A stretch of 64,000 bases of DNA. Source: Geodermatophilus sp. DSM 45219 (GTDB taxonomy: Bacteria; Actinomycetota; Actinomycetes; Mycobacteriales; Geodermatophilaceae). This document shows positions 32,985 to 35,436 of the stretch, piece by piece (position 1 is the first letter of the stretch; each line of letters opens with the position of its first letter). The translations under genes were made by a program, and so were the position numbers. The DNA lies in NCBI RefSeq assembly GCF_900104025.1, contig NZ_FNIQ01000002.1, forward strand, positions 310,001 to 374,000, read 5' to 3'. The notes beneath the pieces were generated by a model. The model worked only from the letters and a program-made list of their open reading frames with translations, was not told the DNA's origin and searched no databases.

Positions 32985-33503
32985 TCAGCCCGGCGCGGTC
33001 ACCGCGGCCAGCACCGCCGCGTAGGCATCCTCGGCGACCGCGCGCAGCTCGGCGTCCGTGCGGTCCTGCACCGGGTGCGGCACCAGCACGTGGGGCGCCG
33101 GGAAGCCCAGCGCCGCCCCCTGCAGCCGGGCCGCGTCGGCGAAGGCCGCGCTGGCGAGGAAGACCCCCACCACGCCGCGGCGCTCCAGGTCGGCGATGTC
33201 GTGCACACTGCACGACGTGCACGAGCCCTAGTCGGCCAGCGCCTCGACCACCACCTCGCACTGCTCGGTGATCTCCTGCCGCAGGTCGACCGGGGCGACC
33301 CGCGCGAACGTGGGCTTCCGGTAGCGGCGCACCGTGACGCCGTCCGCCCGCAGCAGCTCCGCCAGGCGGTCCAGGACGACGTCGCCGCGGGCCTTGCCGA
33401 TGTCCAGCAGGCCCACCGTGCGGCCCTGCAGCGACGCCGGGCGCGGCAACGGCGCCCGGGCGGCCGGCCGGCGCTCGCCGGTCGGATCGAGGACCGTCGT
33501 CAC
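32985..33503 (-). CDS. UGSC-family selenoprotein, selenocysteine encoded by UAG
   Basis: Read conventionally, the frame is a 91-codon ORF ending in TAG (33228-33230) with ~80 more codons in the same frame. Joined, it is a 172-residue protein in which the TAG codon (position 92) is followed by Gly-Ser-Cys-Thr-Ser-Cys. That is the defining UGSC (Sec-Gly-Ser-Cys) motif of a known (seleno)protein family in which the first position is Sec or Cys. Sequence on both sides looks coding and conserved in style: TVGLLDIGKARGDVVLDRLAELL before, SVHDIADLERRGVVGVFLASAAFADAA after. The GTG start overlaps the stop of the thioredoxin-like gene. UAG-directed Sec is reported in Geodermatophilus and Blastococcus. 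Selenium-dependent redox function is inferred; no substrate is known. Confidence 0.88.
33199..33224 (-). promoter_or_regulatory. Candidate SECIS hairpin after the UAG of the UGSC gene
   Basis: Starting 3 bases after the UAG, an 8-bp perfect stem (tcgtgcac, 33217-33224, with gtgcacga, 33199-33206) encloses a 10-base loop 12-21 bases downstream of the codon. That is where the apical loop of the bacterial fdhF SECIS lies relative to its UGA. It is inside the coding sequence, as bacterial SECIS elements are. Confidence 0.55.
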
Positions 33504-34897
33504 GCCCGCACCTCCCGGGTCACCGGAACACTGCCCGTCTCGCCGGCGACCCAGCCCCCGACGATCGCGCTGAACAACCCCGCGTCGCCGCCGGCATGGG
33601 CCACCAGCAGACCACCGGGCCGGAACTTCGGCACCTCGCCGGCAGCGACCCCGGGCGGCAGGCCCTCGGCCATCCCGCCGGCCCCCCGCACCAGCTCCCC
33701 CGCCGGCAGCCGCAGCAGCCCGTCGAGCTCGGCCAGCAGCCGGGCCCGGTCCCAGCCGGCCGCCGCGAACACCCGGCCGTGCTCCGGGGAGACGACCAGC
33801 ATCGCGTCGAAGGCCATCGGCAGCTTCGGGTGCGCGTTGACGCGCAGGCAGGCCGCGAACGTGCGGGCCAGCGACTCCGGGTCCCGGCTGAGCTGGTCGA
33901 CCACCGGCTGCACGCCGGAGCCGGCGAAGACGGTGACCGCGTCGCCGGGCACCCCGCGGTCGGCCGCCAGCGGCGGGAACGGGCTGTCCTGCTCCCGCTC
34001 GGCGAAGCAGAAGGTGACCTTCCCCGGGTTGCCCAGGGTCGCCCGGTCCACCTCACCGGGACGCCCGCGGCCGACGTTGCGGACCACCAGCTGCAGCGCC
34101 CGGCCGATCGTGGCGTTCGCCCGGTTGCCCTGTCCCAGCGCGTTGACCCCGCTGTTCATCCCGATCCGCGTGGCCACCGGTCCGTTGACCACCACCACCG
34201 GCCCGGCGAAGTAGGTGGTCGCCAGCAGGCCGTGCAGCGCGAACTCCTCCGCCGACGCCGCCTCGACGGCCGCCAGGACGACCGGCAGGTGCTCGGGCAG
34301 GCAGCCGGCCAGCACCGCGTTGACCGCCACCTTCTCGACGGTGCAGGGCACCAGGTCCGGCGGGACGACGGCGACGACCTCCCCGGGGTCGCGGGTCGTG
34401 CCGCGCAGCATCCGCACCACCCGCTCCGGTGTCGGCGGCACCACGGGCAGTCCGTCGGTCCAGCCCCGGTCGAACAACGCCTCGTGCTCGTCCTCCAGGT
34501 CGGCCAGCTCGACCCGGCGGCTGGTCAGCCCGCTGCTCCCGTACCGCGCGTCGAGCGCGTCGACCCGGGTGGGGTCGACCGACAGCGACCCGCAGCCCGG
34601 CCGGTGCTCGGGCAGGCCCTCGCCCAGCCCGGCGACGCCGGCCAGCGCCTCCCACTGCCCACGGCTCCAGCCGACCACCCGCGCGGTCTCCGCGCCGTCC
34701 TCCACCCGCATCAGGGTGGGGACCGTCTCGATGCCCAGGCGGTAGGACAGCTCGAGGGCGGTGTCGTCGTGGTCGAACCAGGTGGGGTCGTCCTGGCACC
34801 ACACGGCGGCGCCCAGCCCGCGCAGCACCGGCTCGACCAGGACGCAGGTCGGGCAGTCCCGCTTGACGACGGCGACCAGGCCGTCGGGCAGCTGCAC
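33500..34897 (-). CDS. Thioredoxin-like domain fused to conserved domain, partner of the UGSC protein
   Basis: A 465-residue protein. Residues 1-~110 form a thioredoxin-like fold with an active-site CPTC (KRDCPTCVLV) close to the N-terminus and a cis-Pro loop (ETVPTLMRV). The remaining ~340 residues are a conserved domain I cannot name, with the phrases TDGLPVVPPTPERV, TVEKVAVNAVLAGCLPEHLPVVLAA, MNSGVNALGQGNRANATIGRAL and KVTFCFAEREQDSPFPPLA. I recall similar sequence in genes next to UGSC proteins, but this cannot be checked here. Both active-site cysteines are encoded by TGC, not TAG. The stop overlaps the UGSC start (GTGA), implying a redox pair. It is divergent from the OsmC-like gene with 83 bases between starts. 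Confidence 0.75.
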   Translation of the reverse strand: MQLPDGLVAVVKRDCPTCVLVEPVLRGLGAAVWCQDDPTWFDHDDTALELSYRLGIETVPTLMRVEDGAETARVVGWSRGQWEALAGVAGLGEGLPEHRPGCGSLSVDPTRVDALDARYGSSGLTSRRVELADLEDEHEALFDRGWTDGLPVVPPTPERVVRMLRGTTRDPGEVVAVVPPDLVPCTVEKVAVNAVLAGCLPEHLPVVLAAVEAASAEEFALHGLLATTYFAGPVVVVNGPVATRIGMNSGVNALGQGNRANATIGRALQLVVRNVGRGRPGEVDRATLGNPGKVTFCFAEREQDSPFPPLAADRGVPGDAVTVFAGSGVQPVVDQLSRDPESLARTFAACLRVNAHPKLPMAFDAMLVVSPEHGRVFAAAGWDRARLLAELDGLLRLPAGELVRGAGGMAEGLPPGVAAGEVPKFRPGGLLVAHAGGDAGLFSAIVGGWVAGETGSVPVTREVRA

Positions 34898-34980: not shown

Positions 34981-35436
34981 GTGGCTGAGATCGCCTACGT
35001 GTCGGAGGTCCGCGTCGAGCGGCTGGGCGGGCCGCTCCGCGCGGCCCACCTGCCCGGCGAGGAGGAGCCGACCGTCTACGGGATGCACGGGGCCATCGCC
35101 GAGCACTACGGGATGCAGCCGGGTGCCGCACCGAGCCACGCCAGCACGATCGACCACCTCGTGGGCGCCGCACTCGGTTAGCTGACCGGGACGTTCGCCG
35201 GGGCCCTGGCGGCCCGGCGGATCGACCCCACCGGTCTGGTGGGGCACGCGCGCGGTGAGGTCGAGCTGGAGGGAAAGGTCCTGGTGGTCAAGCGCATCGC
35301 GGTCACCTACACCGGTCTGGACGTCGCCGAGGAGGACGCCGGGAAGGTGCAGAGGGTGCTCGCGGTCCATGCCGACGGCTGCCCGGTGGCGCGGAGCCTC
35401 AAGGGGTCGATCGAGATCACCACGCAGCTCGGCTGA
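34981..35436 (+). CDS. OsmC-like selenoprotein, selenocysteine encoded by UAG
   Basis: The frame is interrupted only by TAG at 35179-35181. Reading it as one residue gives a 151-residue OsmC/Ohr-type protein with that residue at position 67, in the context HASTIDHLVGAALG-x-LTGTFAGAL. In OsmC proteins this is the helix position of the peroxidatic cysteine. The second active-site cysteine of the family follows in HADGCPVARSLKGSIEI near residue 134. OsmC/Ohr enzymes reduce organic hydroperoxides using a Cys pair; a Sec version would be more reactive. Neither half alone makes a complete fold. It starts with GTG at 34981 after GCGGGGGA and stands opposite the UGSC/thioredoxin pair. Confidence 0.88.
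35196..35211 (+). promoter_or_regulatory. Candidate SECIS hairpin after the UAG of the OsmC-like gene
   Basis: Fourteen bases after the UAG, cgccgg (35196-35201) and ctggcg (35206-35211) can form a 6-bp stem (one G-U) with a GGCC tetraloop 21-24 bases downstream of the codon. The position suits a bacterial SECIS, but the high GC content makes chance hairpins likely. Confidence 0.4.

What the first reader, a model, noticed from the sequence alone, without database searches (positions are those of the whole stretch)
34981..35436. Second UAG-Sec candidate: OsmC-like protein with amber codon at the peroxidatic position
Only one codon (TAG, 35179-35181) interrupts a 152-codon frame. It occupies the helix position of the OsmC/Ohr peroxidatic Cys, while the second conserved Cys (in GCPVARS) is intact. 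Two independent amber codons at catalytic chalcogen positions within 2 kb make chance nonsense mutation very unlikely. The rarity of UAG as a Sec codon adds to the interest.
Basis: partly seen in the sequence, partly recalled or inferred. Interest (0 to 1): 0.95.

Follow-up and report, generated by a model that had tools for sequence, protein, structure and literature searches.

The report
UAG selenoprotein with displaced insertion signal
In a soil bacterium, probably a Geodermatophilus, an OsmC-family redox gene carries the stop codon UAG where its relatives carry cysteine or UGA, and because the genome has a selenocysteine tRNA that matches UAG the codon is likely read as selenocysteine, probably directed by an RNA hairpin that sits 33 bases further downstream than in the other selenoprotein genes compared.

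Summary
In detail: one TAG (35179-35181) interrupts a 152-codon OsmC frame. The genome has selA, selB, selD and a tRNA-Sec with anticodon CUA. The gene occurs in 17 of 112 family genomes; all 17 have one TAG at the same codon and a CUA tRNA-Sec. Relatives outside the family have TGA there (69 of 69 named loci read) or, further out, mostly Cys; the four TGA genomes with a clear tRNA-Sec all have UCA. AlphaFold gives an OsmC/Ohr fold (pLDDT 96) with the codon in the central helix. UAG-Sec in Geodermatophilaceae (FDH, UGSC, AhpC) and UGA-Sec OsmC-like proteins were known; I found no report of UAG-Sec OsmC. The surprise is the signal. FDH (30 of 30 UAG, 8 of 8 UGA rows read) and UGSC (22 of 22 UAG loci) carry an RGUSU-loop hairpin with its loop at nt 22-26 from the Sec codon. 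OsmC has this element only at nt 55-59, displaced by 33 nt; a conserved hairpin, 33 nt long if its outer pairs form, lies between. Codons under the displaced hairpin are nearly frozen. My untested reading: the first hairpin folds out and restores SelB geometry ('bridged SECIS'). No translation or selenium data exist here.

The parts
34981..35436 (+). OsmC-family gene, 152 codons counting the final TGA; GTG start is predicted
   Evidence: 17 relatives
35179..35181 (+). in-frame TAG, predicted Sec codon (residue 67)
35380..35382 (+). codon of conserved Cys134 (GCPVARS), presumed resolving residue
   Evidence: sequence; invariant in 35 of 35 aligned
35192..35224 (+). hairpin H1, nt 14-46 from the U of the UAG (33-nt span if the two outer pairs form)
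   Evidence: RNAalifold; pair counts; pair probabilities (0.39 in 66 nt, 0.81 in 90 nt)
35226..35244 (+). hairpin H2, nt 48-66: 7-bp stem with loop GGUCU (35233-35237); candidate displaced SECIS
32988..33503 (-). UGSC-family gene with its own in-frame TAG (33228-33230); used here as comparison
33198..33216 (-). hairpin of the UGSC gene at nt 15-33 from its UAG, 7 bp, loop AGUGU at nt 22-26
33500..34897 (-). gene divergent from OsmC, between it and UGSC, with a weak thioredoxin-like match; neighbour, not needed for the mechanism
   Evidence: PF13098, 19.7 bits, under the cut-off of 27

Best explanation
This is an OsmC-family gene whose in-frame UAG, placed at the catalytic cysteine column and matched by a genome-encoded tRNA-Sec with anticodon CUA, is likely decoded as selenocysteine, with a downstream GGUCU-loop hairpin (H2, nt 48-66) as the likely SelB signal. 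Shown by sequence: the codon, its conservation, the tRNA gene, selA/selB/selD and the hairpin sequences. Inferred: SelB brings Sec-tRNA(CUA) to the ribosome and H2 lets it win over RF1 at this UAG. Inferred: hairpin H1 (nt 14-46) folds out, so that H2 sits effectively 18 nt from the codon, as the corresponding loop does in FDH and UGSC. Inferred from the OsmC/Ohr family: Sec67 attacks a hydroperoxide or similar oxidant and Cys134 resolves it.
For: Same-codon TAG in 17 of 17 family genomes with the gene. TGA at that codon in 69 of 69 named loci outside the family and in the closest outside copy (83% identity); Cys in 7 of 8 stop-free phylum rows. tRNA-Sec CUA in all 17 UAG genomes, UCA in the 4 UGA genomes with a clear tRNA-Sec. 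selA, selB, selD over cut-off. OsmC/Ohr fold, residue 67 in the central helix. RGUSU loop at nt 22-26 in FDH 30 of 30 UAG and 8 of 8 UGA rows (two identical) and UGSC 22 of 22 UAG loci; in OsmC only at nt 55, in every TAG copy and 7 TGA copies. Synonymous diversity 0.02 in codons 81-88 against 0.43 in codons 2-66. Pro83 CCC, Gly85 GGT, Leu86 CTG, Val87 GTG in 24 of 24 copies. No RGUSU hairpin in the six Cys homologues tested.
Against: No peptide, 75Se or reporter data. Folding energy is not distinctive against dinucleotide shuffles (z -0.41); 84 of 2000 synonymous recodings fold as well. A 7-bp RGUSU hairpin arises in 1.43% and a 6-bp one in 5.6% of 100000 synonymous recodings. H1 pairing probability in the window's own sequence is 0.39 in 66 nt (0.81 in 90 nt), and its outer pair 0.23-0.55; in L163 pair 15-45 is lost (2 of 18 rows unpaired there). 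Predicted H2 is weak in some TGA copies (L071 0.12 in 90 nt, L074 0.07 in 66 nt), and L069 breaks its outer pair. H2 spacing (51 nt) lies outside the 16-37 nt of the published bSECIS model. The exact 33-nt match depends on the two outer pairs of H1.
Confidence: 0.8

Rival explanations
1. UAG is read as Sec, but the signal is H1 (loop at nt 28-32), homologous to the GCGCGC-UGGMR-GCGCGC hairpin of the other UGA copies; H2 is conserved for another reason.
For: H1 lies where the hairpin of the other UGA copies lies (loop at nt 29-33 in three read; folds), its spacing of 24 nt fits the 16-37 nt model, and 97.9% of its pair cells are kept.
Against: The H1 loop varies (CUGGC, CUCGC, CUGAC, CUAGC) and lacks G in its first two positions; it does not resemble the RGUSU loop of FDH and UGSC; H2 codons are more frozen than H1 codons.
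Confidence: 0.15
2. UAG is a real stop and the gene is a decaying or split gene making a 66-residue peptide, or a regulated truncation, with little or no Sec insertion.
For: UAG may still serve as a stop in this genome (4 of 29 frames in a crude count over the window); termination will compete at some level.
Against: Same codon in 17 of 17 genomes of four genera, with the C-terminal half conserved at 83-92% identity overall; TGA, not random stops, in outside copies; a matching tRNA-Sec and two further kinds of UAG gene in the genome.
Confidence: 0.03
3. UAG is read as an amino acid other than Sec (pyrrolysine or a suppressor tRNA).
For: ARAGORN names the CUA tRNA tRNA-Pyl.
Against: Rfam scores the same tRNA as tRNA-Sec (65.1 bits over 47); it lies between selD and selA; the column is Cys or UGA in relatives. 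I did not search for pylS.
Confidence: 0.02

Closest known systems
UAG-decoded selenoproteins of Geodermatophilaceae: FDH and UGSC (Mukai 2016, as cited in PMC5330540) and AhpC of Blastococcus saxobsidens DD2 (PMC5330540)
   Same: Same family of bacteria, tRNA-Sec with CUA, UAG at the Sec site; this genome has FDH and two UGSC genes with TAG.
   Different: OsmC is not among the cases named in the passages seen; its RGUSU hairpin lies 33 nt further downstream.
OsmC-like selenoproteins with UGA (Sargasso Sea, PMC1088965; PMC9312934; PMC13188914)
   Same: OsmC family with Sec in place of the catalytic Cys.
   Different: Codon UAG here; motif U-L-T-G-T rather than the listed UxxT. I did not compare with the listed accessions.
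OsmC/Ohr peroxidases (PDB 2onf, 1nye, 1n2f)
   Different: Sec predicted instead of the first Cys; only 7-18% identity in the OsmC/Ohr rows.
Bacterial SECIS (E. coli fdhF type)
   Same: Small loop with G-U, as in the FDH and UGSC hairpins.
   Different: Spacing 51 nt against 16-37 nt in the model, with another hairpin in between.

Membership tests
OsmC/Ohr family (PF02566) | profile match over the curated cut-off | tested here: met
   37.2 bits, cut-off 27.5
OsmC/Ohr family (PF02566) | OsmC/Ohr fold | tested here: met
OsmC/Ohr family (PF02566) | two conserved chalcogen positions (central helix, and before the last helix) | tested here: met
   residues 67 and 134 invariant in 35 aligned, position 67 being Sec codon or Cys; placed by model. 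Distance between them not measured
OsmC/Ohr family (PF02566) | hydroperoxide reductase activity | not testable with these tools
   needs an enzyme assay
NCBIfam OsmC subfamilies (TIGR03562, TIGR03563) | score over the curated cut-off | tested here: not met
   24.0 bits against 85.8 and 23.9 against 166.15
UAG-decoded selenoproteins of Geodermatophilaceae | tRNA-Sec with anticodon CUA | tested here: met
   17 of 17 genomes with the gene
UAG-decoded selenoproteins of Geodermatophilaceae | further UAG-Sec genes and Sec machinery in the genome | tested here: met
   FDH, two UGSC genes, selA/selB/selD
UAG-decoded selenoproteins of Geodermatophilaceae | selenium in the protein | not testable with these tools
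   needs 75Se label or mass spectrometry
Published bSECIS model (PMC13188914) | apical loop of 3-9 nt with G in its first two positions, 16-37 nt after the codon | tested here: not met
   H1: 24 nt but loop begins CU; H2: loop GGUCU but 51 nt
OsmC-like selenoprotein of the reviews | motif UxxT | tested here: not met
   U67-L68-T69-G70-T71; motif

The most novel reading that the evidence does not exclude
OsmC mRNAs of this clade carry a 'bridged SECIS': the SelB-binding GGUCU hairpin lies 33 nt too far from the Sec codon, and a folded 33-nt hairpin inside the coding sequence takes up the surplus, so that ribosome and SelB meet standard geometry. The module stayed intact while the Sec codon and the tRNA anticodon differ between UGA/UCA and UAG/CUA lineages.
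Probability: 0.5. Interest if true: 0.82.

Novelty: new variant of a known kind. Interest (0 to 1): 0.68.

Why it matters
It adds a protein family to the small set of natural UAG selenoproteins and gives UGA and UAG versions of one gene (83% identical, each beside the fitting tRNA-Sec), a natural experiment on codon reassignment. If the bridged signal is real, SECIS searches limited to 16-37 nt would miss genes of this kind, and the spacing rule becomes a rule of distance in space that can be tested directly. Public records hold only halves of the gene in this family (three named records of 84 residues).

Tried and rejected
Folding energy as proof of a SECIS: rejected, not distinctive in so GC-rich a stretch. 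A 48-nt fold first suggested a GGCC loop at nt 24-27, and the 72-nt minimum-energy fold shows it too; set aside because variants such as L012 and L013 break that stem. A 57-nt fold pairs nt 7-11 with 53-57; it competes with H2. When 66 nt are given, the minimum-energy fold holds H2 in 7 of the 11 copies folded (not in L017, L069, L071, L074).

Operon linkage as a clue to function: OsmC lies beside the thioredoxin-like gene in 5 of 5 own-genus genomes (with UGSC next in the window and in the three named ones with longer flanks) and in none of the 12 other-genus UAG genomes on the flanks held (1.5 kb; 4 kb or less for the 8 of them with named records) by tblastn at 1e-4. No shared function is claimed.

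My first regular expression missed LG-stop contexts and was replaced. L202 did not match the pattern and was not read. The best 80 of 204 genome-contig loci were kept by the tool; the other 124 were not seen. tRNA anticodons were read in 59 of the 108 family genomes with a match. Of 34 loci scanned for UGSC, 22 have the D-stop-GSC pattern; the 12 others (L221-L228, L230-L233) have no stop. FDH loops were read in the 30 loci handed out.

Papers: Mukai 2016 is not held; I know it from citing passages and recall. No UAG-OsmC report showed in the listings of searches, and no displaced two-hairpin SECIS in those of 68, 92 and 93; the library lacks most subscription papers.

Full report
What is there. 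The frame 34981-35436 is open except for TAG at 35179-35181. Read through, it matches PF02566 OsmC over residues 55-148 (37.2 bits, cut-off 27.5). No second copy was found in the genome at E 0.01.

The machinery. The genome (12 contigs, 4.97 Mb) has selA (TIGR00474, 409 bits), selB (TIGR00475, 287 bits) and selD (TIGR00476, 386 bits), all over cut-off and in one 19-kb stretch. Between selD and selA lies a tRNA that Rfam scores as tRNA-Sec (65.1 bits, gathering 47) with anticodon CUA; ARAGORN calls it tRNA-Pyl. Other UAG genes in the genome: a formate dehydrogenase with TAG before HS and two UGSC-family genes with one TAG each, one of them the neighbour at 32988-33503.

The column. A search of 112 family genomes found the gene in 17 (4 of 12 genera), each with exactly one TAG, at the same codon. 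Eleven named records (Geodermatophilus, Blastococcus, Modestobacter; L056-L066) encode the same sequences as eleven of these and add no independent cases. The other 69 of the 80 loci kept (of 204 found) all have TGA there; they come from Rubrobacter, Pseudonocardia, Ornithinicoccus and others, many of them MAGs labelled Acidobacteria, Gemmatimonadetes, Chloroflexi or Deltaproteobacteria. In the order (397 genomes) there are 15 hits: 14 TAG, all in the own family, and one TGA at 83% identity (G133). In the phylum (396 genomes) 46 genomes hit; of 56 rows, one has TAG (the window), 41 have one TGA, 8 nearly full-length rows have no stop, and 6 are fragments, among them G730 pieces with TAA and TAG and a G670 piece with TGA. 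I placed the TGA on the column in 18 of these loci. Of the 8 stop-free rows, 7 have Cys at the column and one (L210) has not. Twelve metagenome proteins with Trp at the column are most simply UGA read with another code by the source; this is inference. Three named public proteins of 84 residues ('OsmC family protein' of Geodermatophilus sp. DSM 44513, Blastococcus montanus and B. mobilis) are only the part after the stop.

Codon and anticodon. A DNA match to the tRNA exists in 108 of 112 family genomes. I read 59 of them: 52 CUA and 7 UCA, the latter all in genera g5-g7. All 17 genomes with UAG-OsmC are among the CUA ones. Of five UGA-OsmC genomes checked (G133, G434-G437), four have a tRNA-Sec over the cut-off, all UCA; the fifth (G434, a MAG) has none over it. 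So both anticodons occur inside the family, and the OsmC codon agrees with the tRNA in the 21 genomes where both were read. The tree puts the 17 TAG copies and the G133 TGA copy in one supported clade (96/90); whether G133 lies inside or beside the TAG copies is unresolved.

The signal. Count the U of the Sec codon as 1. In FDH, a 5-nt loop GGUCU at nt 22-26 occurs in 30 of 30 UAG loci read, 29 with a 7-bp stem, including changes on both sides of the stem; in UGSC the loop is AGUGU (21) or AGUCU (1) at nt 22-26 in 22 of 22 UAG loci, 21 with 7 bp. In 8 FDH rows from UGA decoders (two identical) it is again RGUCU at 22-26. OsmC has no such loop there. In 130 nt after the codon its only RGUNU hairpin of 6 bp or more has its loop at nt 55-59, in all TAG copies and in seven TGA loci (L067-L071, L074, L163), and in none of the other 63 named TGA loci nor of the 18 phylum loci read, some of which repeat named ones. 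The offset is 33 nt. RNAalifold over 14 distinct TAG sequences places another hairpin at nt 14-46, a span of 33 nt, and H2 at 48-66. Taking H1 out leaves 11 unpaired nt before a hairpin of 7 bp and 5-nt loop, as in FDH and UGSC. The exact fit depends on the two outer pairs of H1, whose probability is modest.

Selection on the RNA. Four-fold-site diversity among the 17 TAG copies is 0.43 in codons 2-66, 0.165 (65-72), 0.232 (73-80), 0.02 (81-88) and 0.482 (89-96); other low blocks are 33-40 (0.305), 97-104 (0.29) and 113-120 (0.302). Across 17 TAG and 7 TGA copies Pro83 is CCC, Gly85 GGT, Leu86 CTG and Val87 GTG in 24 of 24, against backgrounds of 31, 24, 53 and 45%. The peptide DPxGLVG occurs in 35 of 44 proteins classed as C-terminal halves, in neither of 2 full-length Cys proteins and in none of 12 Trp ones; a crude pattern put one C-half among the N-halves. 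Counted pairs: 98.3% of cells paired, two pairs with a change on both sides, 8 of 500 shuffles as high (18 distinct rows). Against: energies are not distinctive (z -0.41), 84 of 2000 synonymous recodings fold as well, and 1.43% of 100000 recodings hold a 7-bp RGUSU hairpin somewhere in the stretch.

Literature. PMC5330540 (passages) states that Geodermatophilaceae tRNA-Sec have CUA and that FDH, UGSC and, in B. saxobsidens DD2, AhpC use UAG; it cites Mukai 2016, which I could not read. PMC5133445 (passages) cites UAG in Blastococcus. PMC1088965 (passages), PMC9312934 (passages) and PMC13188914 (passages; section 5) list OsmC-like selenoproteins with motif UxxT; the last gives the 16-37 nt bSECIS model and says that some putative elements do not fit it. 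PMC8659212 (passages) names G23 and U24 in the apical loop, the same positions as in the FDH and UGSC loops here. That the window is from Geodermatophilus is inferred: same-genus genomes carry OsmC sequences equal to those of named Geodermatophilus records.

Verdict. The codon use is known for this family. New, as far as my searches reach, are the OsmC member and the displaced hairpin.

Noticed in passing
   Followed up: partly
33500-34897 (-); L104:6-1298: The gene divergent from OsmC has a 34% homologue beside a UGA-OsmC in a Gemmatimonadetes MAG (L104), a second case of this neighbourhood outside the family.
   Followed up: no
L140, L141, L145, L148-L151 (tRNA loci of genera g5-g7): tRNA-Sec with UCA persists in seven genomes of the same family while 52 others read have CUA, so the anticodon change can be dated inside the family.
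   Followed up: partly
L067-L135: UGA-OsmC is spread over many bacterial groups; copies outside the actinobacterial clade show a near-constant GCGCGC-UGGMR-GCGCGC hairpin about 23-38 nt after the codon.
   Followed up: partly
L221-L228, L230-L233: UGSC-family copies without an internal stop occur in the same bacterial family as UAG copies; their residue at the Sec column was not read.
   Followed up: no
L002:1501-1592: ARAGORN names the CUA tRNA-Sec tRNA-Pyl, a likely source of wrong annotation.
   Followed up: yes
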